A stretch of 64,000 nucleotides of DNA, taken from contig NC_088295.1 of NCBI RefSeq assembly GCF_032854445.1, positions 5,086,501-5,150,500 of the forward strand. Reading direction: 5' to 3'. Every line of letters starts with the position of its first letter. Within the stretch, counting starts at the first letter, position 1. Positions 10,958 to 62,152 of the stretch are shown in pieces. Under the pieces are notes generated by a model. The model did no database searches. It worked only from the letters and a program-made list of their open reading frames with translations, and was not told the origin of the DNA. This stretch comes from Liolophura sinensis. Its lineage: Eukaryota; Mollusca; Polyplacophora; Chitonida; Chitonidae. Both the position numbers and the translations under genes were made by a program.

Positions 10958-13900
10958 CTACAACGTGAGAAAATACACCATTAGTTAGAAATAAATTCCA
11001 CCACCATATGGCTGAAATACAGTCGATGTGGTGTAAAGCCATAATGATTCATTCATTCATTCAGAAATAAACAGCATTTTCTATTAATGTTTGGACTTTC
11101 CTCACAAGGGATTTAAGGGATAAATGTATGAAAACTGGATAGGCATGACTTAGGGAAGGAGTTTTCAGGGTCTATATAATCAGAAGAATGGGTTTGATGA
11201 GTGAGAGCTGACTGTTTCAGTGAGTGCACGTGTACTCACATGGTCTCCACACTTGCTGGCTGTCTCTTTGTCCTTACACCACTGCTCTGGACCGCTCAAA
11301 CAAGCCACGCTTATCTCCCCTGTGTGGCCAGACTGCTTGAAGTACAGCGTGTTGTCTTTGATCTGCTGGGTGTGGACAGGTGGGGGTAGATTCCTCAGCT
11401 GGGAGGGGGTGGAGGAGGAGTTAGTACACAAGTCCAGTTCCTGTGGGGATCGGATGAAAAACAAGTATGAGCAAGGGCTTAACTGGGACCTACAAACATC
11501 AATATATACACACAGCTATTCATTCAGCTTTTCCGCTCATTTATTTTATTGTGGTTTCGTGCTTTACTCAAGAATTTTTCATTTGTATCATGCCAGTAAC
11601 TTTAATGCCTGGAAGAAAGCCACTTCCTTTATTGACAAACTTTCCCCCTTGTGACACACAAACACACAATATTGGTGGAAGTCAAGAGGTCTTCCACACA
11701 AGTCAGATTGTTCAAATGGTCACATTAGCATCGTCAACACGGGTAACCACAAAATCCCGCAGTGAGAGCACGGGTAACCACAAAATCCCGCAGTGAGAGC
11801 ACGGGTAACCACAAAATCCTGCAGTGAGAGCACGGGTAACCACAAAATCCCGCAGTGAGAGCACGGGTAACCACAAAATCCTGCAGTGAGAGCACGGGTA
11901 ACCAAAAAATCCTGCAGTGAGAGCAAGGGTAACCACAAAATCCCGCAGTGAGAGCACGGGTAACCACAAAATCCCGCAGTGAGAGCACGGGTAACCAAAA
12001 AATCCCGCAGTGAGAGCACGGGTAACCACAAAATCCCGCAGTGAGAGCACGGGTAACCACAAAATCCCGCAGTGAGAGCACGGGTAACCAAAAAATCCTG
12101 CAGTGAGAGCACGGGTAACCACAAAATCCCGCAGTGAGAGCACGGGTAACCACAAAATCCCGCAGTGAGAGCACGGGTAACCACAAAATCCTGCAGTGAG
12201 AGCACGGGTAACCACAAAATCCCGCAGTGAGAGCACGGGTAACCACAAAATCCTGCAGTGAGAGCAAGGGTAACCACAAAATCCCGCAGTGAGAGCACGG
12301 GTAACCACAAAATCCCTGTTCAACACCTGCATTGAACCCATAACTTTTATGACCTAGGCATGTAAGCGAGATGAAGCAAACATTCTGCATAATTTTACTG
12401 CTTTTGAGACTTTAATTTCTTTGGTTTAATCAATGTAAGAACCACACTCCCTGAAACCATCTGAATTTAAATTATGTGGAAGAGATTTCATAGTGAAGCG
12501 TAAATTATAAATGTGACTTACTGCGCATACTTTACCAGGGTCAGCTAACTGTGCAAGCAGCTGTGCAATGGTTGGTCCATACTCCTGGATAAGGTTGTCA
12601 CACTGTAAGTAAACAAACATGCTGCTGTACAAGGTTGTCACACAATAAGTAAACAAACATTCTGCTGTACAAGGTTGTCACACTATAAGTAAACAAACAT
12701 GCTGCTGGACAAGGCTGTCACACTGTAAGTAAACAAACAAGCTGCTGGACAAGGCTGTCACACTGTAAGTAAACAAACATACTGCTGGGCAAGGCTGTCT
12801 CACTATAAGTAAACAAACATGCTGCTGGACAAGGCTGTCTCACTGTAAGTAAACAAACATGCTGCTGGACAAGGTTGTCACACTGTAAGTAAACAAACAT
12901 GCTGCTGTACAAGGTTGTCACACAACAAGTAAACAAACATGCTGCTGTACAAGGCTGTCACACTGTAAGTAAACAAACATGCTGCTGGAAAATGATGTCA
13001 CACTGTAAGTAAATAAACATGCTGCTGGACAAGGCTGTCACACAATAAGTAAACAAACGTGCTGCTGGAAAATGATGTCACACTGTAAGTAAACAAACAT
13101 GCTGCTGGACAAGGTTGTCACACAATAAGTAAACAAACGTGCTGCTGGAAAATGATGTCACACTGTAAGTAAATAAACATGCTGCTGGACAAGGCTGTCA
13201 CACAATAAGTAAACAAACGTGTTGCTGGAAAATGATGTCACACTGTAAGTAAATAAACATGCTGCTGTACAAGGTTGTCACACTATAAGTAAATAAACAT
13301 GCTGCTGTACAAGGTTGTCACACTAAGTAAATAAACATGCTGCTGTACAAGGTTGTCACACTGTAAGTAAACAAACATGCTGCTGTACAAGGCTGTCACA
13401 CTGTAAGTAAACAAACATGCTGCTGTACAAGGTTGTCACACTATAAGTAAACAAACATGCTGCTGTACAAGGTTGTCACACTGTAAGTAAACAAACATGC
13501 TGCTGTACAAGGTTGTCACACTGTAAGTAAATAAACATGCTGCTGTACAAGGCTGTCACACTGTAAGTAAACAAACATGCTGCTGTACAAGGTTGTCACA
13601 CAATAAGTAAACAAACATGCTGCTGTACAAGGTTGTCACACTGTAAGTAAACAAACATGCTGCTGGACAAGGTTGTCACACTGTAAGTAAATAAACATGC
13701 TGCTGGACAAGGTTGTCACACTGTAAGTAAATAAACATGCTGCTGTACAAGGCTGTCACACTGTAAGTAAACAAACATGCTGCTGGACAAGGTTGTCACA
13801 CTGTAAGTAAATAAACATGCTGCTGGACAAGGCTGTCACACAATAAGTAAACAAACGTGCTGCTGGAAAATGATGTCACACTGTAAGTAAATAAACATGC

Positions 13901-16900
13901 TGCTGTACAAGGCTGTCACACTGTAAGTAAACAAACATGCTGCTGGAAAAGGCTGTCACACTGTAAGTAAATAAACATGCTGCTGTACAAGGTTGTCACA
14001 CTATAAGTAAATAAACATGCTGCTGGAAAATGATGTCACACTGTAAGTAAATAAACATGCTGCTGTACAAGGCTGTCACACTAAGTAAACAAACATACTG
14101 CTGTACAAGGTTGTCACACTGTAAGTAAATAAACATGCTGCTGTACAAGGTTGTCACACTATAAGTAAATAAACATGCTGCTGTACAAGGTTGTCACACT
14201 GTAAGTAAACAAACATACTGCTGTACAAGGTTGTCACACTATAAGTAAATAAACATGCTGCTGTACAAGGTTGTCACACTGTAAGTAAACAAACATGCTG
14301 CTGTACAAGGTTGTCACACTATAAGTAAACAAACATACTGCTGTACAAGGTTGTCACACTATAAGTAAATAAACATGCTGCTGTACAAGGTTGTCACACT
14401 GTAAGTAAATGAACATGCTGCTGGACAATGCTGCTCCACTGTAAGTAAATGCATTTTATTTATTCATTTGATTGGTGTTTTATGCCGTACTCAAGAATAT
14501 TTCACTTATACGATGGCGGCCAGCATTATGGTGGGAGGAAACCGGGCAAAGCCCGGAGGAAACCCACGACCATCCGCAAGGTTGCTGGAGGAAGCCAGCA
14601 TGATGTAAGTACATGCAAATAAATATACAGCTGTGAGGAGCTGATTACCACTCTCAGCATTACAGGGTGTCCAGGTGGCTCTCCTTAAAGATCCGATTAA
14701 TCAATCAGAATTTCAGGAAGGGCTTTGCTCAGAGATGAACACACATCTTCCAACACTTACTGTTAATGTCTTTTTATTCCCGTGGTACGAACAGTCACGG
14801 ATTTCGCGGCAAACACATTTCCGCGAAAATAAGTGCAATCGAATATAAAACCCATATATAGGTAATTTATTAATGTAGCATGTATTACAGTTATAAATTC
14901 GTTGTCAAGCACTACAATGCGACGCTGTTGTTGCTGTTGCTTTATTGCTGCGGTTAGAGACATAAAAATCAGTCATTTGTACTGGGTGTGTGTACCTGAT
15001 ATGATATACATACGAGGAGAGAGGCTGTTTTTTTTATCGACTGTACTCGCCTTCCAGTCAAATCACCTATCTGATGCGCATTGTTCGGGGGCTCTCTGCA
15101 TTTCAAACTTCCCTTTCACAATGATGATTTCTAAGAAATTTACACTAATCTGTCACAGTTCACTCAAAGTTTCACTCACACTGCTGATGCATGAAAATAA
15201 AAGAGGGGGATTTATTTATATCACATTTATTCCTTCGTCGTCTGCCGGAGTCAGTGACACGAATATTTGCTCACACGGCAGGTAAGGGACTTCGTCTTAT
15301 AAAGATTAACAGTCTTCCTTTGTCTGATCAAATTACTGTATTGTATAGAATTTTTGTCACATCTCTTATTGGTACAAAACAAGTTTAAATGTTGACGTAT
15401 GTTAAATGTTGATGTATAACTTGACGTTTCTGTATTGAAGTTTGATTTTTGTTTATCAGTTGTCCAAAAATTCTGTTAAGATCTGCAAAAGTGGGTTTTT
15501 ACGAATGAGTCTTCTTGCCAAATCTGCACAAGTTTATGCCCATGAATAAAAAGGCATTTACAGTATGCACGGTTATAAGACAAGCAATCCAAATTCCAAC
15601 AATGCTGGAGAAGTAATCACTATTTCTCATTAAACTACACAAGAAAGCTCCTCATGCAAATACTGCTACTTTCTTATTGAAAATAAGAAATTTCCCTGTG
15701 AGGTGTCTGGGTCGAAAAGAGTAGCACTGCCCCCTAAGAGAGCTTTGGCATAAAAAAGAGACTATTAAAGCCAGAGCACTCTTCTGTGGTCCCAACGTAT
15801 GGCTTTTGTATTATATATGACAGATCTTTGAAGAAGACACAAAAAACCAAAGGCAGTAATGTTTCCTCAGTTTCCAGCATCTCTCCAAGAAGTTTCAAGA
15901 GAGCGACTTACCTGAGTTTTTAAGTGTCAGGTAAGAAGTTGCAAATCTTGTCCAACAGATCCATGATATCCTGTTCAGTGGCATTGTCCTTCAGCAGGCT
16001 GTCAATGTACTGAACAACCAGCTTACAGGACCTCACAGGCTCCATCTTTGATTGGGCTGAGTTTTGCCTGCTGAACCACCTGCCTGCTGCAGAAACCCAG
16101 AGTCCTGCACACTTGAGAAGGGTCCAGGTCAGCCACTAGCAGCGCGATCACCGCAGAGGCATACTGAATCCACAAATGACTTGCATTCAACCCTGATCGT
16201 GTCAGGCAGACGGGCACACACTGCATCCAGGGCACGGGTCACTTCCTCCTGCCCAAAGTCAGGGTATAATCATATTTAAACACAGGTAAATGTAAGGTAG
16301 AGCAAGCATGAACCTGGTTAATTTACATACACCTCGATATACATCAGATCAATGGCTTTTCATCGATATGGTGATACTTCAGATTTGGTAGACGCCCTTG
16401 TTCAAGTAATCAGACAGTACACTCACGCACCCAACATTCTTGCGTTCCCATTTCACATAGCCAGTTTGGGCTTCACCCTAATAATGTCATCCACATGTAA
16501 CACTAAATGAGCACATCAAACTGGGAAAATATTTACTGCCAATTTTATTCCTTGGTAGATCAATTTCAACCAAGTTTGAGCAAACAACTCGAAACATTTT
16601 GTTTTGTAAAGAAGATTAAAGTGTTTATCCCAAATGGCTTTCTGAAACATGTCCCAGAGCTTAGTTCGCAGGCTGAGGGCCTTACAGGCAATACATCACA
16701 AAAATACAGAGATCCATTACTCTTTAACGGTACACCTATCATAAAGAATAAAAGTCCATAACCAGACCAAATTTCAGTTCAACATCCACAATGAACACTT
16801 CAAATAGCATTCACTCAATACAGTCTAGTTAACTAGGGATCAATTGCTGACCCCACACAGGTGGCTGAGCACTGGTAGGCCTATGCACTGACTGTGGGAA

Positions 16901-19900
16901 GTGGAGGACAGAAAATTTGGTTCTTTGTTAGAATAGTTTAAAAGCTTTTTGAAAGGACTAACATGAAACTGAAGTAAAATACCGGATCTGCGTGATTTTT
17001 TTCGCCAAGTGCAATCTTTTTTAAAGTCGTGATTAACGAGTGAGCCAATATGGACATATGTAATGGATCACCACGACTGCTTAAAACTAATTAATTTTTT
17101 ATCTACCGTAAAAAGTTAAAAGATGGACAAATAACTTGTTGTCTTACGTAAAAGGTTTTCCTTGTTGTGGGAGTCATTTGGCAGGGAAAAATTCTGCCAC
17201 TCAGTGATTTTGAAAACCAAAAATGAAACTCTGACGCTGTGCCACAGTAACAACAATGCGCTATTACAATATGAATTTCATGTACAGAAGTAGTAAAAAA
17301 TAAAAACATGATATAGGACAAGTTTTGTCTATATGACAACTGAGAATTTGTAGTTTTCGCAAAATCATGTAGCGCTCTCATGGCAAACGCATGGAGGAAA
17401 AAAAAAAAAAGATGCGTTCGAGTGCTATGCTCACGGAAAAAGAAAAAATGATTTCCTATTTGCACCAATACACTTTATTCGAGTTTCGGCTTACCAGGCA
17501 CAGTGTACCTTAAATATATTCTTGTCTGACTGTTACTATAAAATGCCTTCCTCAAATTCATTCCACTCTGTTAATTTATGCTTAATAATGCATGATTTAT
17601 GCCAACACTTAGATGAATTCAGACATCTGGCATCAAATTTTGTTTGTGAACTTGAGTAACAGTTGAGGCAATATGTATGTGAGCAGCTTATATGTGTATC
17701 AAAAAAGTGATTACAAATTGTTTTTTTTTTTTTGGTTGGACAGTAATGTTTTGGTATTTACTATACTTGTGTGAAAAAATATCACTAGTGTCTAATAAGC
17801 AGTAACATCACAGCGGATTATTATAGACTTAATCTGCGATTAGACCACTGTCTTAATCCCAGGCTTAATTAAAATATTCGGAAGTGTCATGGAGAACTCC
17901 AGGCAGGTTTAGCATCCAGCAATGGCACTATGCCAAAATTGAAGAACAATAGGCATGTTGTATTGGTATTTGGAGTAGGCTAAGTAAATAATACAAGTGT
18001 TAAACTTTAAATGAAACACTGAAAAGTTTTGAAAATTGTAAACAATAGGAATAAATTAATCTCTCAAAACTGGCTGCTGGAGCTGGATTCGCCGTTTCTG
18101 TGTAGATCACTCTCCTGTACAACTCCCAGGGTGGCCATTTGGTCAGCAACTGAGCATGTCGGTATAGGCAATCAACGATGTAGGCTAAATCTTGAAAACT
18201 TTGTTAACACACCAGTTAGATTAAAAACAAATTCACCAGCCATTTCTCCTAGGCCAGAAGCTCGCACTAATGCACATGCTTTATTCATAAGTCGCGTTGG
18301 CTTGTGAAATTTATGCAAAGATTCAGCCTGTTTACTATAAAATATCTGTTGCATGGTTCTATATGGCAAAATATAAATGTATATCAAAATTAGTGTACAG
18401 ACCGTCAACACCATTCAATGACTTTGATCGCTTATTTTACTCCCTTAAGTTCATTAGGTTAGATACTGCAATAACTTTCTTCTTTTAATAGTATATGCTC
18501 AAATAGCTGAAACACACGGACAGCACCTTTGCTTGCAAACAAGGCTATGTCTGTAGACGGAACTACCTTCACACCTTCCGTCGATAGTCCTGCCCTCTCA
18601 GCAGGTCTATGACCCAGCCCAGTAGAGAATTTGTTACGTGTCTGTGGAGCGTTATTCAGAATCTTGGAGCGTAACATGAGCGCTAAATAACTGACATTCA
18701 GCCTGAGCTGTACTGTAACTCCTTTCAAACTCACCCTGGTGGAGTTCTCCATTAGCAAAGAATCCAGCTCTTTGAGCACGAACTCGCACAGCAAACACTC
18801 AGTTGAGGCGCGGACTTTCTTCAGAGGTTTACGAATACTGACGGCAAGTTTGGGTGTGGCCACACTGACAGCTGTGATGCGTCGGTGCGGTCGCTGAACA
18901 GCAGGGCACAGGTGTAGAGCCTTACATGCCACATTAGGATCCTGAGGAGAAATATGGAACAGTCTTAGGGTAGTACTATCATATTATGCAAACATCACAA
19001 GATCCCATTTTAGCTCAGGTCTTGTCCGATTCCCTGGAATCTACTGGAAAGTCATCAGTCCAATCACTACAGCGCTTAATCAAGGGAGATAAGTGTTACA
19101 CTATAAATTGTCAAACTGTCTAGTTGTCCATGTGTTTTTAATTTTATCTTGGCTACATAAATCAACTGAACAATTAAAGTGAGCCATTAAACTGACAAAC
19201 AGAAAACAAGAAAATGAGAAAAGAAGCACTGAAGACAGCTCACCAGTTCATTTGCAAGATACTCAAAGACCAAGGGGGCATAATCATGAATCAACTGCTC
19301 GCACTGAAACAGAAGAAAAATCAGCTATGTTATTAATATATGTCAGTACAGATGAAGATGAATAAGAACCTACCCAGCATCACTTAGTGCATTATTAGTT
19401 ATATCACTCAAGGAGAGGATGCATATGTCCCCTTTAACACTGCACAAACTTATTGGTGTTTGTCCCAGTTGTATGGCTGCAAGCTTGGTTTTTTTTACTT
19501 GTATACTTTTGGAATAAACAAATGATAGGCAGCAACTTTCATATGGTTGACACGCTGAACAAGACGATGAACTGGGGGGATATGTTTACTTCAGCCTTCA
19601 TCTGGCAAAACAAAGTGGGGTGAACAAGAATACTGACTTCAGAGTATATGCTGACCTCAGCCTTCATCTGTTCAACCCCCTTTGGCCAGACGAAGATTGA
19701 GGTAAGCATATCACCTTTAGTTATAATTTACCTCAGCCTTCATCTGGCCAAACAAAGGGGATAAACAACGTGACTGACTTGGGGGATATGCTTACCTTAG
19801 CCTTCATCTAGCCAAAGAAAGGGGATACACCAGATGACTGACTTTGGGGATATGCTTACCTCAGCCTTCATCTGGCCAAACAAAGGGGGATACACCAGAT

Positions 19901-22900
19901 GACTGACTTGGGGATATGCTTACCTCAGCCTTCATCTAGCCAAAGAAAGGGGATACACAAGATGACTGACTTGGGGGATATGCTTACCTCAGTCTTCATC
20001 TGGCCAAACAAAGGACAGATGTTCTGTATCAGCAGGTTCTCCACTTCAATCTGAAATGAAGAGCGGTCACAAAAATCATCAACAGTTAAATCTCAAGAAA
20101 AAAGAAAACAACAACAAAAACAAACCCCCAATATTGAGAAATAGCTTGCTTACAAGATTATGCCACACACTATCAAGTCAAGGAGCCAGAAACCAGAGGC
20201 AGAACTGAAACACATGATCTAAAGATTTAAGATTGAAGTCCTCAACATTAAACACCTGATGAAGTTGTGGGATGTTCTGCAGCAACCTGCACATGGCAGC
20301 CAGTTTCCCCCCGTTTTCTCCCTCCATAATCCTGGCCGCCGTCGTATAAGTGAAATATTCTTGAGTACAGTGTAAAACAATCAAATAAATAAATAAATCA
20401 AACAAATACCTGGGTCTTGGCGTCCCGGTCCAATGCCTGTATCTCCGTCATCACAGTTTTGCAAATATTACATTCCTCTGGGCCATTAATGTCATTTGTC
20501 TGTAGAAAGGGAGTTAAATCACGTTAGCAGAGCATAATTCTACAATGGAAATGCTCGCCATAGTGTAAATAGAAGACAAGCTTTGACAAACCCAGTTCTG
20601 AGAGAAATTTCCATACAAAGCAGCAGAAAACATGGGACCTACCATGTATATTAGTGTACAACTTACCATGGGAATGTGTTTAACCAGCTCTAGGAATTTC
20701 AGCCGGAACTCCATAGCATCTTTGACGTTCCCAGATTTGCACAATCCAAGGATACGGCATATCACACCTGGATTCTGTCAGAAACAAATGGACAACAAAG
20801 TTTGGATAACACAATTATATCTACCTGGAAAGCAGGGTGAGGTGACCTCTGGACTACAGTTAATTCAATAGAGATCACAAGAAGGGTACACAAATTGAGG
20901 TCATAAATGTGCAACACACATTATAGAATGTGGCACCATTTTATAATGCTATGAGCAAATAGGGTTCTTTTCTAGGAATTCTTCCTCATCCTAATTCTTC
21001 TGTATGTCTGCCTGTCTTAGACTGAAAATACACGTCTCACCATGTACTGTATGAATATCCATTAAGACCAAAATTACATTACAAAAATCAGTACCTGTAA
21101 GTCAACATAATCCAGAACAATTCTGACACACAGTGGACGTTACTTACAAATTCTGAAGACAGCATATCCAGGAACAACGGAACATACTGAGCTACCAACT
21201 TCTTGCACTGAAATGACAAGAATAAGGGGATAGTTCTCATTGGACAAGAACTCAACCAATCAAGCCATTTCTCCATAAAACACACCATGGTCAAATTTGT
21301 TTTGAAAGCCATAGTTAAACAATTACATCTTGGCAAACTGTTATGTCCACACAACATAAAGGGATTTTCTGTATACATATAAGTAAAAATGGCTGATCCA
21401 AGCTTACCATATCTTCCAGTGGCCCCATATGAGCACACAGGACGTCCAGATTCTCCTCAATCTGAGCCTGAATTTACAATACAGTCACACAGCTGGATTA
21501 ATAACATAATAGTCACACTGTAATCGCATTAACAATACATTTATAATCATTCCATATCTACATGTGGCTAAAGCTCATCTCACTGTAGCCAATCAGCGCC
21601 CTGACTGTTGGCAGGTGGCTCTATTCTCGCTCTTTCTAGTTCATCTGTCGTTTACATCAGGATGGTCTCCCAGGACATATGTTCCTGTCTGTGCAAAGTT
21701 TTTACTATGTGCACCGCTGATCCCTTCAAACCAACATCTGACATTTATCATTAAGAGTGAACCATTCTTGAGTATGATGAACATCAATATAAATAAAATC
21801 AATACACTTTACATTACATATCTAAATTCTAACGCAGTGCCCCTATGTGTAGAACAGCATTATGGTCAAAGTCAAATCAAAATGTTCTTGTGACTTATTC
21901 CACTGCAATTTTCATTGTCTTGGGTAAGTGAACATTTAATCTTGGAAAAAGTCTTGGAACAATGGAACTACAAACTTATCAGCTGTAATATTAACATGAG
22001 ACATTCTTTTCTTTCCAGAAAACATTTACTGAGCATTACACTGATGCATGTGATTAATATCCCCCTAGTCTACTTGGGAAGACACATAACCTTACCACAG
22101 TCTGGTTCTCATTGAGAATGGTCTCCACATCCTTTATAAACTTGGTACAGTCGGCGCACAGGTCAGGTTGGGAAGATGTGGTTGTGATTGGAGGTTGTGA
22201 TTCCTGATTGGGAGAGGAAGACTGAGGTTAGGCTGGAGGGAGGAGCCTGGAGAGCCCAGGGAGAGGGTGAAGCCATAAAGTCATGTACACTTCATGATCT
22301 ACATTAACAAGTATCTTCCAATTCAATATTTGTTTATTTATTTAATTGTCTCTTAATGCCATCAATGTAGGAATGTCTGGATAGGACCTGCTGTACATGT
22401 ACTCCTTACAAGATCCATCTGAAGTTTGGACATTATCAATAAACACGGAATGCCACTGAAAATAAATGAACATGTCTACTTACAACAACAAGGATACTAT
22501 CAAATACTCATGCAAAACTATCACTATCAATACATTTTTTTTTTCAATACACTTTCACAGTTTTTCATACATGTATAGTTTACATTCTATAAAGTTTTCA
22601 CAAATTTACATTCAGAACACAAGAAGGCTGGTGCTTTGGAACAAGACTTATGCACCACAAATCACACAAAACTACCGCCGTTGTCATTACAGGTGACTGG
22701 GACAACATGCTTGTCCCACAAAGAAATATACAGACAGTTAACTTTATGACTCAATATGTAAACACCACATGTACTATAATTCGACATCAAATATGAGTCA
22801 AGTACAACATGTACAGACTAGGACAGGATAAAACGTTGTCATCGTCACAGAAAAAAACACACAAGAAGCAATAAGGAAGGTGATACAGAAGCATACATAT

Positions 22901-41540: not shown

Positions 41541-41544
41541 TCAA

Positions 41545-42461: not shown

Positions 42462-42478
42462 TCCACTTGCAGGGGGCC

Positions 42479-42625: not shown

Positions 42626-42642
42626 TCCACTTGCAGGGTGCC

Positions 42643-47190: not shown

Positions 47191-47194
47191 TGGT

Positions 47195-50776: not shown

Positions 50777-50876
50777 GTTTTTACCTAATTTTGCTTAAGC
50801 CATGGTGCTAGGGGACGTGTAAATTGCTACTATTTATGCATTTACATGAACAGTTACAATAAAACTCTACGTCTGA
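50777..50876. repeat. Direct duplication, copy 2 (about 100 bp)
   Basis: Partner of 50397-50495, diverged at a few positions. Confidence 0.85.
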
Positions 50877-51840
50877 CAGTAATCTAATATTGTGCAAACG
50901 ACCTGAAAACAACGACTGCCAATTCATGATGCAAGAGACATAACTGCACATTCATTCTGACAACCGGTTCATAAAGACTATGGAGGGTCAACAATTAAAG
51001 AGGAGAAAAAAAGGATGAGTACCTGTGAGGAGCAAGGATCAAAGCGATCAGGATAAGAAACCAGATGAATCTATGCATGGAAACAGATATTCGTGTACGA
51101 GCCGTCAACCAAGATGGACGTTCTAGGTCAATAATAGCAAAGCCAATTCCCAAAACAACGTTTAACATAAACCACCAAGGACTTAAGAACGAATGAACGA
51201 AAGTAGGACGGAATCATGCAACGTGAAGCAGTCAACAGTTTTCAGTTAAGTTGGGAAAATGCAAGGTATGTTCTGGGCGATTGAGTGAAATCAGTATATG
51301 CAGATCGTGTACCACGCGAGTACAAGATAAGAAAACAGATAGAGACCAGGGAGGAGCAAGGATTAAATGGTCAGGATAAGCAAACAGAGACCACGACGGA
51401 TAAAGAATCAAAGCCGCCGGAACAAGAAAACAGATGGAGACCAAGAGGAACCGCACTGCATATAATTTCAACTTATTTCGACCCCAAAATATTCTCTATA
51501 TTGTCCTTTGGAAAAAAATTCCTATGAAAAAAAATACAACGTTTGTAAAATATAATCTTTTTTGTAAATACAATGTTAAGAAACCAATTTCTTTGTACAT
51601 CATTTATTTAAAAAATACTTAGCCTGAATAATTCATTGACTTGCTTGGTTAATACGAATATATAGAAAGCATAGTACAAATTCAAATTAAATTGCATGTT
51701 AGCAATATAGTACCACGTGGTTCTCTTAAGACAAATGAGTTTTCTTGGCCACTACTTCCATACATAGAGCAATGCAGAAAAATATCATTTACTTCCTGTT
51801 AATGTTGTAAAAGAGAAATAATCTTCAATTATTAAAAGTA
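50877..51840. other. Intergenic upstream of the aquaporin gene
   Basis: Diverged short repeats of 'aggagcaaggat(c/t)aaa' and 'aacagat(g/a)gagacca' at about 51030-51450. No gene seen. Confidence 0.5.
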
Positions 51841-51850
51841 GACGTACAAG

Positions 51851-51862
51851 TATATAAAAGGA
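51851..51862 (+). promoter_or_regulatory. TATA-box candidate for aquaporin exon 1a
   Basis: TATATAAAAGGA, about 490 bp upstream of the exon 1a ATG. A donor-like gtaagt follows at 51891 and an acceptor-like cacaacag ends at 52347, so a tiny untranslated first exon is possible. Speculative without transcripts. Confidence 0.35.
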
Positions 51863-51926
51863 GCATATGTACATACTCCTCTTCACAGATGTAAGTCATA
51901 ATAATGACAATGTGAAATTAATGTTT

Positions 51927-52096
51927 GTACGTGGGAAAGTCTGCCAACAGCCTGCGGATGGTCGTAGGTTTTCTCTGCCCGGCTCTGCCCGGTTTACTCC
52001 TACAATAATGTTGGCGGTCATCGTATAAGTGAAATATTTCTGAGTACGGCGTAAAACACCAATCAAATACATAAACAAAGAAATAAATAAATTAAT
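51927..52096 (+). mobile_element. tRNA-SINE family A, 5'-truncated
   Basis: 'tacgtgggaaagtctgcca' start, 'cctgcggatggtcgtaggtt' body, 'cggcgtaaaacaccaatcaa' and an AAATAAAT tail. Confidence 0.85.
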
Positions 52097-52348
52097 TCAT
52101 GAATTAATGGTTTATTAAGTAACTAGCTCGTTAAGTAGTGAGTGATTTGTTCATTTGTTTATTGAATCATTTGCTCGTGAAACAACGTAGCTACACACCA
52201 CATGCAATGATATGATCATATCCATCAGTTCGCCATGTGACAACACGATACGTCCCGTGTCGTCAGGTTAAGGTCTGCCTTGTCTTGCGGGCTACAGAGT
52301 GGGAAGGGGGCGTGCTGTCATGTGACAGGTACTTTTTCTCACAACAGT

Positions 52349-52620
52349 ATGTCGGAATCAGTGGGAGCAGAAGTAATCAATGAGAGGAGAGAAACTAAGA
52401 GTCGGTGGTCACCTACACCCGCCGAGGAAGCGGAAACACTTGGCAGGGGCCAGATTTACTTCGACGGTTACCTGCGGCCATGCCTGGCTGAGTTCGTGGG
52501 TTTGGTAGTCTTCGTGTTCACCGGCTGTATGGCGGTGCAAGATTTACCGTCCGTCGTTTGCGTGGCCATAGCACACGGACTGACCATAGCCCTGTTGGTC
52601 GCATCTTTCGGAGCAGTCAG
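52349..52620 (+). CDS. Aquaporin alternative first exon 1a
   Basis: ATG at 52349 (first in-frame ATG). Encodes a 40-residue polar N-tail, then [20 protein letters not shown] and [17 protein letters not shown]. The donor AG|gtgagt leaves phase 2, matching exon 2. The helix 1-2 loop is about 9-10 residues shorter than in exon 1b. Confidence 0.88.
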
Positions 52621-55600
52621 GTGAGTAGCAGAGCTTAATCAGCGGGTAACTATCAAATATGCTACAACTAGCAGATACTACAAGTATCCATGTCCAGCCC
52701 CCCTCTGGCTGTAAACAATGTGAAGAATGTGATGTGTAAACAATGCGAAAAAATGATGTCGAGGTCAGGTCAGCAGGGACACAGGTCACAGATCCGCATT
52801 GTACAGGTATTCTGTATGCATAGGCCAGTTAATCACAGTGCTGCCCACCGTCGTATAAGAGAAGTATTCTTGAGGACGGCGTAGGCCTACAACACCAATA
52901 AAATAAATAAATAAAATATAATGCAAATTTTACTAACAAGAAATGCCTTGTCATATTTTGCACCCAACATCTTACAATAGGTAAATTCAAAACAATAAGA
53001 CCCCGTGTTGTTTTTTGAGTGTGGTAATTTAAGTACGCCTTAAGGTATTATATATTATCTTTACTTCTTGCTTTCATTCTACTAAACACACTAATTCTAT
53101 TTCATGGTTATGTACGGGTGATAATGATTATACATTAATTTCCCACGAGGAGTGGGGCGTGGTTCTGGGGACACTAGGTATGGTCTCAGTTTTAGCCTTG
53201 GGAGAAACACGTGGCTCAGTGGTAAGGTGAGTGTGATCTCCAACAGCTGATGGGACAGGGGGTACGAGTTCAGTTCCAGCCTTGGGAGACACTCATGACT
53301 CGGTAGGGTAAGGTAGGAACGACTAACAACCGCAGATGGAACACAGGTTCAGTTCCAGCCTTGGGAGAGACTCGTGACTCGAGGGAAAGATGTGCGCCAC
53401 TCCAACCGCTGATAGGACTCGAGACAAGGGTTTAGTTCCAGCCTTGGGAGAGACTCGTGACTCGGTAGGGTAAGGTGAGCGCTACTCCCAACCACTGTTG
53501 GAACACGAGACACGGGTTCAGTTCCAGCCTTGGGAAACACTTGTGACTCGGTAGGGTAAGGTGGGCGCGACTTCCAACCACTGATGGGACACGAAGTATG
53601 GGTTCAGGAGGCACTACCGGCCCGGATAGCACAGTTGGTGAAGCGTCCGTTTCGGGACCGGTAGATCCTTGATCGAGTCACACCTAAGACTTTAAAAGAG
53701 GAAGTTGTAACTTCATCGCTTGGCGAGGGTATAGTGCAACGACTGGTTGACCCGTGTCAGTATAATGGCTCTGGAGGGGCGACTTACTTACCTTCGGTAA
53801 GCCGTCTCCGTGAAGCAGCACTAGATAAAAGAGCGGTGGAAATCCGTCCTGCAACAAGGAGGCACATTACACGTACATGCACCCTAATGATTCCTTCGTC
53901 GTCATATGACTGAAAAATTGTTGAGTACGACGTTAAACCCCAAGCACTCATTCACTCAGGAGGTACGTCGACAGGAGATACGGATTCAATTCCCGCTGTC
54001 ATATTTGCGGAACGTTGGTGACAATAAGATGGAGGCGACCCTCCCCCGGGCTTTGTCCCATTTCCTTCCACCATAATGCTGGCCGCCGTTGTATCAGTGA
54101 GTACGGCGTAACACAGCAATCAAATAAATCAAATAAATTAATCGACGGCTCTCATCCATGGGGTATTTATACAGGCTTTCTGTTATGAAAAAGCAATTTC
54201 TACCACCATTGTGGCGCTTATGCCGCAGGCCACACTTGGATCGTTACCTTAATCCACATTATTCAGTTTATCACGTTAAACAACAATAAATTAGATAAAT
54301 AATATCTTATATTGGTGCATATATTATAATCGAAGCACACGTTCTGCAGTTCACCATCCACTTTAGTATAGGCCCCTACTGTGTCAGACAGGCAAGTACA
54401 AACTCCCTACGCAATCAACAAGTAGGCCTACAGATTGTCGCGAACAACTCTTTTCACACATAATCATAATGATCTACTTTAGCAGTATCGGCCAGGTGAT
54501 CATTACGTATACTACAACACTACACGTCAGATCCATATCGACCAATGCACACTGACCCAAGGATATAAACGCCCTACATGGACTCTTTAACACAGTAAGG
54601 CCAGTTTTGAGGGCATTCCATATGCATGAACGATTGATGGACATAAGTTTTGTTCTAACAGTAGCAATTAATACCTACAAATTGAGAAAGGGCACCTAAT
54701 ACTCCGTTGAATACCAAGACATTTGGTAATACGACAACAAGCAACTCTAACCAGTGACCAGTCTGCCCACGACTAACCCATGCCACAACACAGGTGTGAA
54801 CATAATTTTATTACAGTTTGCTTTCGGACAACAATAAAAAAACGCGATATGATGAAAACTTTATTCAAAATTGGTTGCTCAGCACATGCAGCAAGATTTG
54901 CAGGGTACTCATGCACCCTTAAACCACACATGTTAAAACGATGCAACATGTTAATTCGCTGTAAAACATGAGTGCGAACGTGTAATGTTACGACGCGTTA
55001 TGAGCGTCAGCAGGATGTAACATAATCATGACAAGATTTTTAAGATGTACAATGAGAATACAGCACCTGAAAGCCTTAATTTGATATCAGATATACAGTG
55101 TTAAATTGCAGTTAGTTCTTATCATTTCATAAATTGTTAAATTTCCGTAGAAACTGTTTACGTAGCATAGAAAATTCTTTCCTGTCTCCGACACTCTTAA
55201 ACTGTGAAGAGTTTAGGATATATACGGCAATACACTTCAAGTACGTAGTTTCGAAGGCTTAAAACAGGGATGAGCCTGCATGGTGGCACTAAAACCTTGA
55301 GTGGTTTCAATGCCGATATCAGTATGAAAACAGTTGTTTCCCTACCAGTATCAGTATGAAAACACTATTTCCTGCTTGTGTCATAACTCGCCTGCAAAGA
55401 GAACCGTCACACAAATGTAACAACATGGTTGTTACTTCATCAGTCCACCATTTTAATATTCACTGAAGGCATGCTACAAAGCCAATGCTTTAAAAAGTTT
55501 GTTGATAATTACTGTCATATAAAAGTTCACAACTTTATGGGTTTCTTAAGCAATGATTTTAAATGGCTGAAGACCCGTATGCGTCTCTGTGTGCGTCCTG

Positions 55601-58600
55601 TATTTTTGATAGGCCTAATATAACTTTTGTATGCGGTGACATTACCCCATGGTAACCTGAAAAGGCACTCCTACGTGACCTGACATTCAAGGTAACTCAG
55701 CACTAAAAAATAACACATCGCACCTGTTGTATCCAACCACACGTCCACGTTGTTCCTGGTAACACCGCTGGAAAAGGAAAGCTTACCCAGACGCTTGGTC
55801 ACCTCCTATGTTTTCTTGCGCAACATATATCTAATCCGTTGGTGTTGTGCCTGTACCTGCTGGACGGGTGACAGTAGAGCACGTCGCCATCGACCAGTCA
55901 GATGGGGATGATAAGCGAGGAGGCGTTTAATGCTTACATACGGCCGTGTATAGCGGAGTTTGTGGGGATGGTACTGTTTGTGTTTACGGGGTGTCTGTCC
56001 GTGCAGGACTCTATTGCAGGCGGCCAGGGCATTCCTTTCCACCAGGCAGTTTGCGTTGCGCTGGCGCATGGTATGGCCATTACATTCCTTGTCGTTGGCA
56101 TAGGACATATCAGGTAAATTTACTGTCATGACGCTAATCATGACCACATCCAGTTGGCCGAAAACACGAACATCGAATTGCGCTTATGTTGGCATAAATC
56201 CACGCGTATCTTGACCGAAAATTATGCGCACATTGACGGACAACCAAGCACATATTGACTGAAAACTATGCGCACATTGACAGTAAAAATATGCGCATAT
56301 CGAAGGAAAACTATGTGCATATTGTCGGAAAACTATCGATATGTTGTCTAACAACTACACTCATATTGCCTTATACGCGCCCTTAATGACGAAAATTAAC
56401 GGATGACTACATGCATATTGACGGATGACTACACTCATATTGACAGATGACTACATGCATATATGGACGGATGACTACACTCATATTGACAGATGACTAC
56501 ATGCATATATGGACGGAAGACCACATGTATAGACATGTACATTGAATATTTTCGTATTAAACACATTACATGCATACTGGCCAACGACCAGTATCAGTTT
56601 GTGGCATACGAAATGCTCAATAACGCACTTCATTATGTTTACTGCTGACGAGAGCCTGTTATTTTGGTCAAGTCTAAATCTGGTAAGTCTGTGTCAAATA
56701 AACTGCCGTTAATATGTGGTTTGCTGATTCAACATTGACGTGAAGTAATAACACACCGGGCCTAAATGGTGCAATTAAAAATTGGCTTATAATTGTATTG
56801 TGATGAGGCTCTGTGATGGATATAAGATGAACTGCTATCTCGATCCCCCTGAGGACTCCTGAGGACTGAGGATTTGTCCCGTGACCCAGAACGGTCCGAT
56901 GTTAAGATTACATACAGGAGATGTGTCAGGCAGGCCTGTGGTGGTAATAACGTCAAGACGACAAGACGGCAGTTTGTCTGTTAAACCCCAAGCACTCACA
57001 TACTCATTCCAATTAACCTATAGCACGTCATTAGCGTCATGGCACAAAATTCATTTTATTTCATTGTATCACTAGTGTTGCCATAAACCTTCCACAATGC
57101 CTGCGAAAATGTCACAAACATTCTAGCCTCTTGTAACCAACTCTTGCACAAATATTCTAGCCTCTTGTAACCAACTCGTCCACAAGCATCCAAGCCTCTT
57201 GTGACCAAGTCGTCCACAAACATTCTAGCCTCTTGTAACCAACTCTTGCAGAAACATCCTGGCCTCTTGTAATCAACTCGTCCACAAGCATCCCAGCCTC
57301 TTGTAACCAACTCGTCCACAAACGTTCTAACCTCTTGTAACCAACTCGTTCACAAGCATTCTAGCCTCTTGTAACCAACTCGTCCACAAACGTTCTAAAC
57401 TCTTGTAACCAACTCGTCCACAAACGTTCTAACCTCTTGTAACCAAGTCTACAAACGTTCTAACCTCTTGCAATCAACTCGCCACGAACATTCTAGCCTC
57501 TTGTAACCAACTCTTCCACAAACATTCTAACCTCTTGTAACCAACTCGTCCACAACCATTTTAGCCTCTTGTAACCAACTCGTCCACAAGCATCCCAGCC
57601 TCTTGTAACCAACTCGTCCACAAACGTTCTAACCTCTTGTAACCAACTCTTCCAACAAAAAGTCCTAACCTCTTGTAACCAACTCTTCCAACAAAAGTCC
57701 TAACCTCTTGTAACCAACTCGTCCACAGACATTCTAGCTTCTTGCAATCAACTCGTCCACAAACATTCTATCTTCTTGTAACCAAATCTTGCACAAACAT
57801 TCCAACCTTTTGTAACCAACTCGTGCACAAAGATTTTAGCCTCTTGTAACCGACTCTTCCACAAGCATCCCAGCCTCTTGTAACCAACTCGTTTACAAAC
57901 ATTCTAGCCTCTTGTAACCAACTCTTCCGCAAACATTCTAACCTCTTGTAACCAATTCGTCCACAAACATTCTAGCCTCTTGTAACCAACTCGTCCACAA
58001 ACATTCCAGCCTCTTGCAATCAACTCGTCCACAAGTATTCTTGATTTCAATGATTAACATTTTCACGGTCTCCACCGAAAAGTCACAAGCATTACTCTAA
58101 TGGGCATTGCTGAGTCCCCCGCCGAAAAGTCACAAGCATTACTCTACGGGCCATTGCTGAGTCCCCCGCCGAAAAGTCACAAGCATTACTCTGGTTCGAG
58201 CAGCGAAGGTTTCCATAATCCATCATCAACTCTCTACAAGCAAAACGAGGGTATTGCAACCAACCTTTCCACAAGTAATACCTGGGTATTGCGTGCAAAT
58301 TTTAACAAGCATTACCGGGTACTGCAACCATCTTTGATGAGTGTTTTCTTTTTAATTTTTGCAATAAAGTGCCTTTAATATGTTTTTTTTTAAATTTTTG
58401 TATTTTATTTTATTTTTTTTCATGACAGCGGTGGCCACCTCAACCCAGCAGTCACCCTCGGTGTATTCCTGTCTGGTGGAATCAAACCTCTGCTGGCCAT
58501 GGCCTATGTTGTGGCCCAGCTCCTCGGCAGTCTGGTCGGGGCCGGTTTGGTCCGGGTAAGTTTGACCCGTCTGTTTGAACCACCAACGAACAAGTATTCT

Positions 58601-61600
58601 GACTAGAAAGCCGCGCACGAATCGGCGAGAGCTGGGTTTGAACCTGCCCCAGCATTGGTCAGAGATCTAATTCGGAGGCTTGGTCATTAAGGGCCCTCAG
58701 CCGGGTGTATACATAATACACTGTCCTCTGGAATATATTTGTTATTTTTGTTGCCGCCTACCCGTAACCGTGTTTATTTATTTATTTATTTTGTATGCTT
58801 GGTAAGCATTATGTCTGGTACTATTTGTATTTTGTTTTTAAACAATGTTAAACTTCATATGTTCCTACTTGTGATTGGCAGGCTGTATTGCCCAGCACCA
58901 CTTTTAAGGCTATAGGAGGGGGCGCCCACAATCTGGTCCAGGGAGTTGGGCCAGGCCAGGGGATTGTCTGTGAGACTCTGCTCACCATGACTCTCGTGCT
59001 CGCCGTCCTCATGTGCGCTGTCGACACCGACAAGAACGTCCTCGCCCCGCTCGCCATTGGATTCGCCGTCACAGTCGACATTTTGGCTGGGTGAGCCATC
59101 AACCACTGTTCATAGATCACGATGTTGTGTGTTATGCTTTGGTATAATTTGAATCACAACGTTACTTATCACAAAGTTAATAAGTAGTAAAAAGGTAAAG
59201 TTAGCCATTTAGGGCGCCTTTCAAAACAAATGTAGACAGTTTGCTAAGTCTGCATAGTGAATAGGTCGATTTCAGATCCTAAACAACTGGGTCCTACTTG
59301 ACAAAGTTTTGTTGCATCACGATGACCAGCTGTGGACAAACTGCACAAGCATACGTAGATCGACGCATTTGGAGAGAGCTGGATGCTTCTGATCGCAGAA
59401 AAGTTGAGCACGTTAATTCAAGTCAGTAGTCGTCAGTGATCGCAAATCCGCAAAGACAGACCGAGCATGCGACTGGAAGAAACTGTATTTTTAACGACCG
59501 GAAGCATCTCGGAACAACTGGAAACAACTTTGAAAATATAATCGGACACTGGTTTTAGTCGATCTACGTGCACTGACTCAGCAGTTGCTGGGAGTTGAAC
59601 ATTTTTGTTCGACCCGAATGACCCAGTTGCCGCCAGCCGTAGCCGACCTAGGCCTGGTCATACTGAATTGAATCAAAATTGGTCATATATCGTTAGATCA
59701 AAAACAAACCTTTCGACAAAAGCCTTAGGCGTAGGTCGACTTTGTGGAGACGACTCACGCCCAGCCTAAAACCAGCGCCCGATCGTTGCTTCAAAGTGCT
59801 GCCAGTTGCACCCCCCCCCCCCATAAAAAAAAAACAAAAAACAAAAAAAAACAAAACAATTTGCACCGAGTCGCAAAATCAATCGATAAATAAAAGCAAT
59901 GCTGTATCTGATCACCGAAGCTTCCATAACATCGGCAACAATGTATCTGTATGTTTTTAGTGCGTTGTCTACGTTGGTGGAACTTTGCACGAAAAGGGCA
60001 AGAGTACATCGGACTTGCGACTGCATGGGAACAACTGGGAGCAAATGATCGAGCGCCGGAGTAGTCAATCCAAGTGACACTGTGCGATGCTCACGATCAC
60101 ATTTATAGTTTTGCCAAAACTTTTGAACATATGCGTTACGCGTATCGACCTACGTTTCGTTTATTGGTTTATGACAAGATCTAATTCAATGAATATATTA
60201 AGCAGGAAACAATATATCTGATTGCTTGCATCCTAGAATCTATGTCAGTGCGACTTGCATGAAGTAGACAAGAGTGTAGGTGTATATCTTCAGTACTAGG
60301 ATATCTGTCACTGGAACTGCAACGTATCTATTTGCTTTCATCACAAGATATCCTTCACTGAAGTTTCCAAAAAGGAGACAACACTGTATCTGTATATCTT
60401 CACCACCGGTGCGGGATCTTGGTGACTGAAACAGGTAACTGGCTTGCGTATTACAGCATCTACAGTTGTCGCTGCATGGGGCTTCCAGGTAACAATGCAC
60501 CTATTAGTGTTCATTGCAAAATCTATGCAAAGAATGTACCCGGATGTCTTCGTTTAAGATGAAATAGAAGATCAAAAAAAGATCAAACAGATCAAGTAAC
60601 TTCTAAGAACAGACAACAGTATACGTGAGGGTGTCGATTAACAGGATATGTGTTGCAGAAACGTTTCTTCGTCTCTTCATCAGCGGATCTACATCAGTGG
60701 GGTATCCGTGAAACAGTTAGCAATGTTTCTCTGTGTTTTCATCACAGGATCACCGTTACTGGAGGTTCCATAAAGCAGTTGGCAATGTCTCCCCATGTTT
60801 TCATGACAGCATCAGCGCCAGTGGAGCTTCTATAAAACAGTTAGCAATGTCTCTCCGTGTTTTCATCACAGGATCAACATCACTGGAACTTCCATGAAAC
60901 AGTTAGCAATGTATCTGTGTTTTCATCACAGGATCAACGTCACTGGAGCTTCCATGAATCCAGCCAGAAGCTTCGGCCCTGCTGTCGTCGTGAGCAACGT
61001 ATCCAACGTCTGGTCGTATCATTATGTGTATTGGGTGGGCCCTCTTATGGGTTCACTTTTAGCGACGCTACTGTACAGGTGAGGATAGTGTCGTGAAATA
61101 CCGTAGTACACACGACTAAGTTATTATGGTCTCCGTTAATGACGTTGCGATACAGGCGAGAATAGTGCCGTGAAAGGCAATATATTTATTTATTTATTTC
61201 ATTGGTGTTTTACTCCGTACTCAAGAATATTTGACTTATACGACGGCGGCCAGCATTATGGTGGGAGGAAACCGGGCACAGCCCGGGGGAAACCCACAAC
61301 CATCTGCAGGCTGCTGCAAGACCTTCCCACGTACGACCAGAGAAGAAGCCAGTACGAGCTGGCCTTGAATGTCAATAGTACACACTACTAACAGTATCAC
61401 TGTAGAACGGGCAGGGCCTCTGGTGGGATAGCTGTTAGCGATGTTGCTGTACAGGTGAGAATAGTGCCGTGAAACGCAATAATATACACGACTAACAGTA
61501 TCACTGTAGAATGGACTGGGCCTCTGATAGGATAACTGTTAGCGATGCTGCTATACAGGTGAGAATAGTGCCGTGAAACGCAATAATACATACGACTAAC

Positions 61601-62152
61601 AGAATCACTGTAGAATGGGTGGGCCCTCTTCAGGGGTATCTCTTAGCGACTCTTTTGCACTCACGACTTAAAAAAGCACTGTCACCAATGCGGTCGCTGT
61701 GAGTTCAAGTGCTGGCTTCCTCTCCGCCTGTACATGAGAAGGTCTGACAGCAACCTGCGGATGGTCGTGGTCCTGTATACTGTGACTCCCTGTCACAGTA
61801 TACAGACACCTGACACGACTCCTAGTCACAGTATACAGACACCATACACGACTCCCTGTCACTGTATAGACACCTGACTAGTATAAAATAGGACATACAC
61901 ATTTCTAACAATGTCACTGTGATTGGCAATTTCTGTCTCTCATTTAGCCCCAAGCCAGCAATATAGACGATAGAATATAATATAGCCTCAAAGCGATAGT
62001 CATTTCCAGTACGGTGTTTATAATTCGTCCATGTTAAGCTGTATAAGTCTGATCCTACCCCGTTGTTTGATTTCAGACTGTGCTTTGCTAATCCTGATAA
62101 CCGCCTGGTTATGAGAGGAACACCGCAGACAACTTACCAACGGTTTGAGTAA
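52349..62152 (+). CDS. Aquaporin-8-like channel with alternative first exons
   Basis: Exon 1a (52349-52620) or exon 1b (55902-56113) joins exons 58429-58555, 58882-59090, 60932-61078 and 62077-62152. Products are about 276 or 256 residues, the usual aquaporin size. Both NPA boxes are present: [10 protein letters not shown] and [24 protein letters not shown] before the second box, the GC(M/L)(A/S)VQD motif in helix 1 and AHG in helix 2 match the AQP8 group, whose members pass water, ammonia and hydrogen peroxide. The helix-1 cysteine matching the redox-gating Cys53 of human AQP8 is kept in both first exons; the mercury-sensitive cysteine two residues before the second Asn is serine. All junctions keep phase. 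Substrate is inferred from family. Confidence 0.92.
52838..52918 (+). mobile_element. tRNA-SINE family A, tail fragment
   Basis: 'ccgtcgtataagagaagtat' with 'acaccaataaa' and an AAATAAAT tail. Confidence 0.75.
53165..53603. repeat. Imperfect tandem repeat, about 85-90 bp, about 5 copies
   Basis: Copies share 'gggttcagttccagccttgg', 'gagactcgtgactcggtagg' and 'gtaaggtgagcgc'. In aquaporin intron after exon 1a. Confidence 0.85.
53615..53955 (+). mobile_element. tRNA-SINE family B, near full length
   Basis: The head 'ggcccggatagcacagttgg' (A box), 'gatccttgatcgagtca' (B box) and the body 'aagactttaaaagaggaagt' lead to the tail 'gttaaaccccaagcactca'. Imperfect flanking duplication tcaggagg(c/t)ac at 53604-53614 and 53956-53966. 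Confidence 0.88.
54035..54140 (+). mobile_element. tRNA-SINE family A, 5'-truncated
   Basis: 'ctcccccgggctttgtccca', 'ccataatgctggccgccgtt' and an AAATAAAT tail; an internal deletion removed part of the region before the tail. Confidence 0.8.
54141..55901. other. Aquaporin region between exons 1a and 1b
   Basis: No further exon or array seen. The promoter of exon 1b should lie here; no TATA box was convincing. Confidence 0.5.
55902..56113 (+). CDS. Aquaporin alternative first exon 1b
   Basis: ATG at 55902. Starts almost at helix 1 ([20 protein letters not shown]), then [19 protein letters not shown] and [17 protein letters not shown]. The donor AG|gtaaat has the same phase as 1a, so 1a and 1b replace each other rather than follow each other. 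Confidence 0.88.
56165..56545. repeat. Degenerate tandem repeat, about 28-30-bp unit
   Basis: Copies vary around 'aaaactatgcgcacattgac' and, further right, 'ggatgactacactcatattg'. Confidence 0.8.
56955..57000 (+). mobile_element. tRNA-SINE family B, tail relic
   Basis: Only 'ctgttaaaccccaagcactc' and the CACATACTCATTCC end remain. Confidence 0.6.
57075..58040. repeat. 34-bp minisatellite, about 28 copies
   Basis: The unit contains 'cattctagcctcttgtaacc' and 'aactcgtccacaaa'. In the intron before aquaporin exon 2. Confidence 0.95.
58065..58335. repeat. About 47-bp repeat, 3 good and several decayed copies
   Basis: 'gaaaagtcacaagcattact' with 'attgctgagtcccccgcc'. Decayed copies continue toward exon 2 (acaagtaatacctgggtatt). 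Confidence 0.8.
58429..58555 (+). CDS. Aquaporin exon 2 (first NPA box)
   Basis: Acceptor ttttttttcatgacag. [20 protein letters not shown] is followed by [20 protein letters not shown]. Donor CGG|gtaagt. Confidence 0.93.
58882..59090 (+). CDS. Aquaporin exon 3 (helices 4-5)
   Basis: Acceptor gattggcag. [17 protein letters not shown] runs through [20 protein letters not shown] and [17 protein letters not shown]. Donor GG|gtgagc. Confidence 0.93.
59091..59880 (+). other. Aquaporin intron 3, proximal part
   Basis: No gene recognised. A poly-C/poly-A tract lies at 59810-59860. Confidence 0.55.
59885..60931 (+). repeat. Tandem copies of the exon 4 acceptor (about 60-62-bp unit)
   Basis: Four recognisable copies (cag at about 60684, 60747, 60809, 60871) of 'tttcatcacaggatcaacgt' plus 'cactggagcttccat'. 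More decayed copies run back to about 59900, e.g. 'gatcaccgaagcttccataa'. Confidence 0.85.
60932..61078 (+). CDS. Aquaporin exon 4 (second NPA box, helix 6)
   Basis: Acceptor ttttcatcacag. [20 protein letters not shown], then [19 protein letters not shown]. Donor CAG|gtgagg. Both of its borders are multiplied in the flanking introns. Confidence 0.93.
61120..61655 (+). repeat. Tandem copies of the exon 4 donor (about 104-bp unit)
   Basis: Copies of the last about 45 exon bases with donor and intron start (acaggtgagaatagtgccgt) at 61454 and 61558. A donor-mutated copy (gcgaga) lies at 61155 and a partial copy at about 61612-61655. A SINE interrupts the series. Confidence 0.87.
61180..61370 (-). 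mobile_element. tRNA-SINE family A inserted in the exon 4 donor array
   Basis: Tail (tatttatttatttatttc), 'ggtgttttactccgtactca', 'ggtgggaggaaaccgggcac', 'aacccacaaccatctgcagg' and part of the head. It lies between copies of the array, so it is younger than the first duplication or moved with it. Confidence 0.87.
61681..61770 (+). mobile_element. tRNA-SINE family A, head fragment
   Basis: 'caccaatgcggtcgctgtga', 'gttcaagtgctggcttcctc' and 'cctgcggatggtcgtgg'. Confidence 0.75.
61773..61875. repeat. About 35-bp repeat with a perfect hairpin
   Basis: Three copies of 'gtcacagtatacagacacc'-type units. The first forms a 14-bp perfect stem (61773-61786 with 61792-61805). Confidence 0.85.
62077..62152 (+). 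CDS. Aquaporin terminal exon 5
   Basis: Acceptor tttgatttcag. [20 protein letters not shown] then QRFE and TAA. Cytoplasmic tail. Confidence 0.88.

What the first reader, a model, noticed from the sequence alone, without database searches (positions are those of the whole stretch)
12522..61655. Minisatellites seeded by real exon-intron junctions, four times in two genes
Four arrays are not random intron repeats. Each unit contains a piece of a coding exon plus its splice signal: prosaposin exon 16 acceptor, prosaposin exon 12 donor, aquaporin exon 4 acceptor and aquaporin exon 4 donor. All touch or nearly touch the parent exon and extend into the intron. In the two with clear divergence, identity falls with distance from the exon, as if copies were repeatedly generated at the exon edge. 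Two unrelated genes on opposite strands show it, which suggests a genome-wide process. I know of no named mechanism for this.
Basis: partly seen in the sequence, partly recalled or inferred. Interest (0 to 1): 0.85.

Follow-up and report, generated by a model that had tools for sequence, protein, structure and literature searches.

The report
Splice-junction minisatellites ("mirages") in a chiton
In this chiton genome, short tandem repeats often contain a piece of an exon with its splice signal; the arrays are real, but the same thing was described in amphioxus as "mirages", and here they are about as common as chance seeding by a repeat-rich genome would give.

Summary
In detail: four arrays, two in a prosaposin-like gene and two in an aquaporin, repeat an exon edge with its splice signal. 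The genome matches the published HiFi assembly of the chiton Liolophura japonica.

In a sample of 213 kinesin and myosin exon matches (420 splice junctions), 19 met a written criterion and 14 were real on reading, on nine contigs. Seven of the 14 come from the 256 junctions of the exons not yet read when the criterion was written. The feature is therefore widespread.

It is not unnamed: amphioxus genes carry the same structures, called "mirages".

A special exon-edge process is not shown. The confirmed rate is 3.3% of junctions (2.7% in the later set); random intron points meet the same geometric test at 2.3% (ratio 1.46, 95% CI 0.69–2.87). That arrays touch the exon and run into the intron follows from tandem duplication of a junction. 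Decoy splice sites are mostly kept, but no better than other positions in their arrays.

Best explanation: random minisatellite seeding filtered by selection on coding sequence. A weak, threshold-dependent fall of identity with distance remains. As far as the listed search results go, a mollusc case and a frequency estimate are new.

The parts
   Evidence: sequence reading; saposin domain hits in the same gene
12591..14449 (-). acceptor-type junction array, 40-bp unit, functional copy 12630-12591 plus 46 decoys; 85% of decoys keep AG
19553..20014 (-). donor-type junction array, 64-bp unit, functional copy 20014-19951 plus 6 decoys, all 6 keeping GT
   Evidence: MIP profile hit
60646..60958 (+). 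acceptor-type junction array, about 62-bp unit, functional copy 60897-60958; copy at 60646 weak (0.67)
61032..61660 (+). donor-type junction array, about 104-bp unit, functional copy 61032-61135; a truncated copy, an inserted interspersed repeat, then further copies at 61408, 61512 and 61616

Best explanation
These are mirages: minisatellites whose founding tandem duplication happened to span an exon-intron boundary. Tandem duplications arise throughout genes in this minisatellite-rich genome. Those founded inside coding sequence are removed by selection. Those founded in introns survive freely. Those that straddle a junction survive because only one copy stays joined to the rest of the exon, and that copy is still spliced. 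Every other copy is left in the intron as a decoy exon edge, so the array necessarily runs from the exon into the intron. The decoys then evolve like other minisatellite units, by copy-number change, homogenisation and drift, while coding selection holds the functional copy. Shown here: the structure, its frequency in a sample, depletion inside exons, and decoy splice dinucleotides that are kept about as well as the rest of their units. Inferred: the duplication mechanism (slippage or break repair), the role of selection, and correct splicing, probably because the authentic site is the nearest partner in exon definition.
For: Structure of the four window arrays. 19 of 420 junctions flagged, 14 confirmed by reading, 5 acceptor and 9 donor cases, on nine contigs. 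Later-fetched exons alone: 12 flagged, 7 confirmed, of 256 junctions (2.7% confirmed). Random intron points: 797 of 34,930 = 2.3%. A second criterion gave 16 of 420 (CI 2.1-5.7%; 13 of the 16 confirmed on reading) against 136 of 6000 (CI 1.2-3.5%). Exon-facing array ends: 4.0e-4 per bp in introns, 0.6e-4 at 80-200 bp inside exons (3 ends in 50,375 bp); array coverage 16.5% beyond 150 bp from an exon match and 2.2% in exon matches. Within-array conservation of the splice dinucleotide is ordinary (mean percentile 0.55, p=0.49, 15 arrays). The assembly is HiFi with a mean read of 8.3 kb, longer than these arrays (PMC11068029).
Against: Array ends at 8-40 bp inside exons are about twice the intron background (11 ends in 13,440 bp; over 8-80 bp, 17 in 30,240 bp, 1.4 times), all flagged junctions give 4.5%, and the window has 4 cases at no more than 28 junctions, so a modest bias toward junctions is not excluded. 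The decay of identity with distance is stronger than at ordinary array edges at one threshold (p=0.043). Splice dinucleotides match the functional copy more often than other dinucleotides do (0.86 against 0.76, p=0.025; p=0.005 and 0.0006 at stricter copy thresholds). That comparison is biased, because the functional copy is locked at this dinucleotide and free to drift elsewhere, but it does not exclude some retention. No RNA was examined.
Confidence: 0.75

Rival explanations
1. An exon-edge-directed duplication process: something about splice junctions (co-transcriptional RNA-DNA hybrids, splicing-linked breaks, nucleosome edges) seeds tandem copies there, and new copies are added next to the exon.
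For: Array ends at 8-40 bp inside exons are about 2x background; 12 of 14 arrays have identity falling with distance, more than ordinary array edges.
Against: Ratio to intron control 1.46 with CI 0.69-2.87, and 2.7% against 2.3% in the later-fetched set; array ends are also raised at 20-120 bp on the intron side (29 in 41,850 bp), so nothing is specific to the junction; the gradient weakens with stricter copy thresholds (8 of 11 and 6 of 9 negative) and the largest of the four window arrays is flat; the amount of exon included varies from about 9 to 72 bp, with no fixed offset.
Confidence: 0.12
2. The junction arrays are kept by selection as splicing regulators or as a reservoir of alternative exon edges.
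For: 210 of 236 decoys keep the canonical dinucleotide (185 of 204 at a stricter threshold), more often than other dinucleotides match the functional copy; the globin paper proposes that mirages can yield new introns (PMC3087553).
Against: Within arrays the splice dinucleotide is no better kept than other positions; published amphioxus RT-PCR results suggest no interference with regular splicing.
Confidence: 0.06
3. Assembly artefact: collapsed or expanded repeats.
For: Tandem arrays are prone to misassembly; coverage was only 14x.
Against: Mean HiFi read of 8.3 kb exceeds array lengths; many copies diverge by 5-30% or more and so are not duplicated reads; an interspersed repeat lies inside one array; the same pattern recurs at 14 other junctions. 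No reads were examined.
Confidence: 0.03

Closest known systems
Mirages of amphioxus (Adh3, globin genes BflGb6 and BflGb9, PGBD5; troponin C cited, and retinol dehydrogenase and presenilin papers cited for similar structures)
   Same: Minisatellite-like tandem copies of exon-intron boundaries, at both 5' and 3' boundaries, with splice signals in many copies; unit lengths 10-72 bp (Adh3) and 150-160 bp (globin) bracket most of those here (passages of PMC3087553 and PMC3902484; the original Adh paper is not held)
   Different: Here in a mollusc, with up to 46 decoys in one array, and with a frequency estimate across a gene sample. Somatic instability and RT-PCR are reported for amphioxus and were not examined here.
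Human interferon-induced transcript (6-16, IFI6) minisatellite providing multiple splice donor sites
   Same: By its title, a minisatellite that repeats a donor site (title seen only, in reference lists; the gene name and anything further is recalled)
   Different: By its title the human copies provide donor sites to a transcript; use is unknown here.
Intron gain by tandem genomic duplication
   Same: Tandem duplication that copies splice signals (search listing and abstract starts only, e.g. PMC4974935, PMC2891723)
   Different: There a duplication is held to create a new intron; here many copies accumulate inside an existing intron and, as far as can be told, the exon is unchanged.

Membership tests
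Mirage (junction-spanning minisatellite, amphioxus) | tandem repeat unit spans an exon-intron boundary | tested here: met
   four window arrays and 14 of 420 sampled junctions
Mirage (junction-spanning minisatellite, amphioxus) | many copies carry the AG or GT splice signal | tested here: met
   210 of 236 decoys in 16 arrays; two arrays with a single decoy left out; 185 of 204 at a stricter threshold
Mirage (junction-spanning minisatellite, amphioxus) | both donor and acceptor boundaries are affected | tested here: met
   2 acceptor and 2 donor arrays in the window; 5 acceptor and 9 donor cases in the sample
Mirage (junction-spanning minisatellite, amphioxus) | regular splicing is not disturbed | not testable with these tools
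   no RNA data at hand
Mirage (junction-spanning minisatellite, amphioxus) | copy number varies between haplotypes or in the soma | not testable with these tools
   one assembly, no reads
Mirage (junction-spanning minisatellite, amphioxus) | concerted evolution inside the array, boundary copies excluded | tested here: inconclusive
   weak decline of identity from the functional copy, 12 of 14 negative, 2 of 14 at p<0.05, 8 of 11 and 6 of 9 at stricter thresholds; ordinary edges 21 of 40 negative

The most novel reading that the evidence does not exclude
Splice junctions in chitons, and perhaps in other minisatellite-rich invertebrates, are hot spots where tandem duplication starts about 1.5-2 times more often than elsewhere in a gene and grows outward from the exon, giving a continuing supply of duplicated splice sites and half-exons from which new exons and introns can be made.
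Probability: 0.13. Interest if true: 0.75.

Novelty: new member of a known kind. Interest (0 to 1): 0.42.

Why it matters
If about one junction in thirty carries a run of decoy splice sites, this genome is a natural test of how the spliceosome picks the authentic site among up to dozens of near-identical ones, and a source of raw material for new exons and introns. It also shows that the amphioxus mirage is not peculiar to cephalochordates. It is a caution as well: gene predictors may call false exons inside such arrays.

Tried and rejected
Special exon-edge seeding: tested with two criteria, excess not significant. Selection for or against decoy splice sites: comparison with the functional copy suggested retention (p=0.025; p=0.005 and 0.0006 at stricter thresholds), but that comparison is biased because the functional copy cannot drift at this dinucleotide; the within-array comparison showed nothing. 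In 3 of the 15 arrays the register was off by a base or two, so the position scored was not the splice dinucleotide. Some of the 236 decoys are weak matches (for example C12:686729, 35 decoys, falling to 17 at identity 0.75 and 7 at 0.80).

Rows dropped: of 19 flagged junctions, 5 were rejected by reading, all 5 in the later-fetched set: C10:35282571, true acceptor further in; C11:27414708 acceptor and donor, a half-exon copy within an array already counted; C6:54957544, no convincing exon there; C9:756885, profile match runs past stops. For C9:5672128 the refined junction was about 30 bp off; the true donor is still inside the array, and it was kept. The control points were not read by hand, so the confirmed rate is stricter than the control rate. 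Using all flagged junctions gives 19/420 = 4.5% against 2.3%. Of the 16 hits of the second criterion, 3 are among the rejected, and it missed C2:5378501. Some of the 420 junctions, placed by a simple splice-site score, will be wrong; 6 exon edges gave none. The profile searches score only the best candidates, so the 213 matches are the listed ones, not every kinesin and myosin exon.

The criterion was written down after the first 50 loci had been seen and before the other 109 regions were fetched. Confirmed: 7 of 164 junctions in the exons already seen, 7 of 256 in the rest.

An aquaporin alternative-exon reading of the last donor copy (61616-61660) was considered and dropped, because such an exon would skip the NPA motif. 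No sister-species comparison was made: no other chiton genome was at hand.
Full report
What was checked. Tandem Repeats Finder lists 65 rows in the window, which reduce to 42 arrays of period 10 or more covering 26.7% of it. Reading the gene regions with Pfam hits for SapB, MIP and a polycystin channel places a saposin-type gene on the minus strand and an aquaporin on the plus strand. Aligning copies to the functional junction copy confirms the four arrays: two acceptor-type and two donor-type. Among 14 listed exons compared with arrays of unit 15 bp or more within 4 kb, the next best exon-unit match scores 11 against 19-25 for these four.

Source. The genome (609,464,459 bases in 632 contigs) is that of the chiton Liolophura japonica. 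The published assembly has 609,495,693 bases and 632 scaffolds (passages of PMC11068029). Scaffold lengths such as 96,433,062, 58,388,612 and 37,343,639 are identical, while two that I compared (C10, C13) are a few kb shorter here. It was built from HiFi reads of mean length 8.3 kb at 14x, so arrays of up to about 2 kb should be spanned; no reads were examined.

Is it widespread? Kinesin and myosin head exons were taken as a sample chosen without regard to repeats: 132 and 81 listed matches. All 213 were fetched with flanks, in 145 segments totalling 251 kb, and 420 splice junctions were placed (6 edges gave none). The criterion, written after the first 50 loci had been seen and before the rest were fetched, was: an array spans the junction, ends 8-80 bp inside the exon, and reaches at least 15 bp into the intron. 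19 of 420 met it. Reading each one left 14 real junction arrays, 5 acceptor and 9 donor, on nine contigs; 7 of them are among the 164 junctions of exons already seen and 7 among the other 256. Examples: a 73-bp unit repeated over 20 times after a kinesin donor (C11:27412983); a 64-bp unit before a kinesin acceptor (C8:682171); and a 95-bp unit whose copies include the myosin stretch NPLLEAFGNAK (C1:67512493), a motif whose conservation I recall.

Is it more than random seeding? Random intron points from the same segments met the same criterion at 797 of 34,930 (45 segments; CI 1.3-3.3%). The confirmed junction rate is 14 of 420 (CI 1.7-5.1%); the ratio is 1.46, CI 0.69-2.87. In the later set alone it is 7 of 256, 2.7%. 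All flagged junctions would give 19 of 420, 4.5%. A second criterion based on matching the first 24 exon bases to the array unit gave 16 of 420 (CI 2.1-5.7%) against 136 of 6000 (CI 1.2-3.5%). The density of exon-facing array ends is about twice background at 8-40 bp inside exons (11 in 13,440 bp), 1.4 times over 8-80 bp (17 in 30,240 bp), and also raised on the intron side at 20-120 bp (29 in 41,850 bp). It is about one seventh of background at 80-200 bp inside exons (3 in 50,375 bp). A two-fold bias is therefore possible but not shown. A depletion within coding sequence is clear, and selection is its likely cause.

Geometry. If a segment spanning a junction is duplicated in tandem, only one copy stays joined to the rest of the exon: the last for an acceptor, the first for a donor. 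The others must lie in the intron. This is reasoning, not a tool result.

Decoy sites. In 16 arrays with two or more decoys, 210 of 236 decoys keep the canonical AG or GT; at a stricter copy threshold 185 of 204 do. Compared with the functional copy, the splice dinucleotide is kept better than other dinucleotides (0.86 against 0.76, p=0.025; p=0.005 and 0.0006 at stricter thresholds), but the functional copy is locked at that dinucleotide and free to drift elsewhere, so this is expected without selection on the decoys. Compared with other dinucleotides inside the same arrays, it is conserved to an ordinary degree (mean percentile 0.55, p=0.49, 15 arrays, 3 of them with the register off). The simplest reading is that the decoys are neither purged nor kept, so splicing probably ignores them; no RNA was examined.

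Gradient. Of 14 arrays with five or more decoys, 12 have identity falling with distance from the functional copy, 2 of them at p<0.05. With stricter copy thresholds the numbers are 8 of 11 (3 at p<0.05) and 6 of 9 (2 at p<0.05). Ordinary array edges give 21 of 40 negative, with Mann-Whitney p=0.043 against the 14. The largest of the four window arrays is flat.

What is known. Passages of two papers show the same structure in amphioxus under the name mirage: globins, with Adh3 and papers on retinol dehydrogenase and presenilin loci cited (PMC3087553), and PGBD5, with Adh and troponin C cited (PMC3902484). The globin paper notes that both boundaries can be affected, that the results suggest no interference with regular splicing, that the mechanism of origin is unclear, and that mirages could create new introns. 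A human minisatellite with multiple splice donors is known to me from a title in reference lists. Ten library searches were made, nine of them on this topic (one search was for the species). The rows listed show no report in a mollusc, but several lists were capped (20 of 77, 12 of 94, 8 of 648) and I read titles and abstract starts. An abalone paper describes an intron minisatellite without, in the passages seen, any link to a junction (PMC6905558). Most subscription papers are not held, so this is weak evidence of absence.

Verdict. A real and widespread feature of a known kind, in a new phylum as far as searched, explained best by ordinary minisatellite formation filtered by selection.

Noticed in passing
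G000:C11:27412983-27414830 (L020, L133): A kinesin gene carries a 99% identical copy (105 bp compared) of the 3' part of an exon ([35 protein letters not shown]) about 1.7 kb downstream, embedded in the junction array with its own donor: a candidate for exon or intron gain in progress.
   Followed up: partly
window 61183-61370, also at 14490, 20332 and 42560: An interspersed repeat (core CTCAAGAATATTTCACTTATACGACGGCGGCCAG, 4 matches in the window) lies inside the aquaporin donor array, so that array is probably older than this insertion.
   Followed up: partly
window 52448-52620 and 55908-56112: Two aquaporin first-exon-like segments upstream of one set of downstream exons: alternative first exons or a partial gene duplicate.
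   Followed up: no
G000:C99 (108,685 bp): Seven COX1 matches about 15.5 kb apart, six of them full length, and one more on C632: probably a concatenated mitochondrial contig, an assembly product.
   Followed up: no
window 61616-61660: The last copy of the aquaporin donor array keeps an open frame ([16 protein letters not shown]), with most codon differences from the parent exon synonymous by eye, unlike the two middle copies.
   Followed up: partly
window 1598-2929: Polycystin-family channel coding sequence in a 443-codon open frame (PKD_channel, Polycystin_dom).
   Followed up: no
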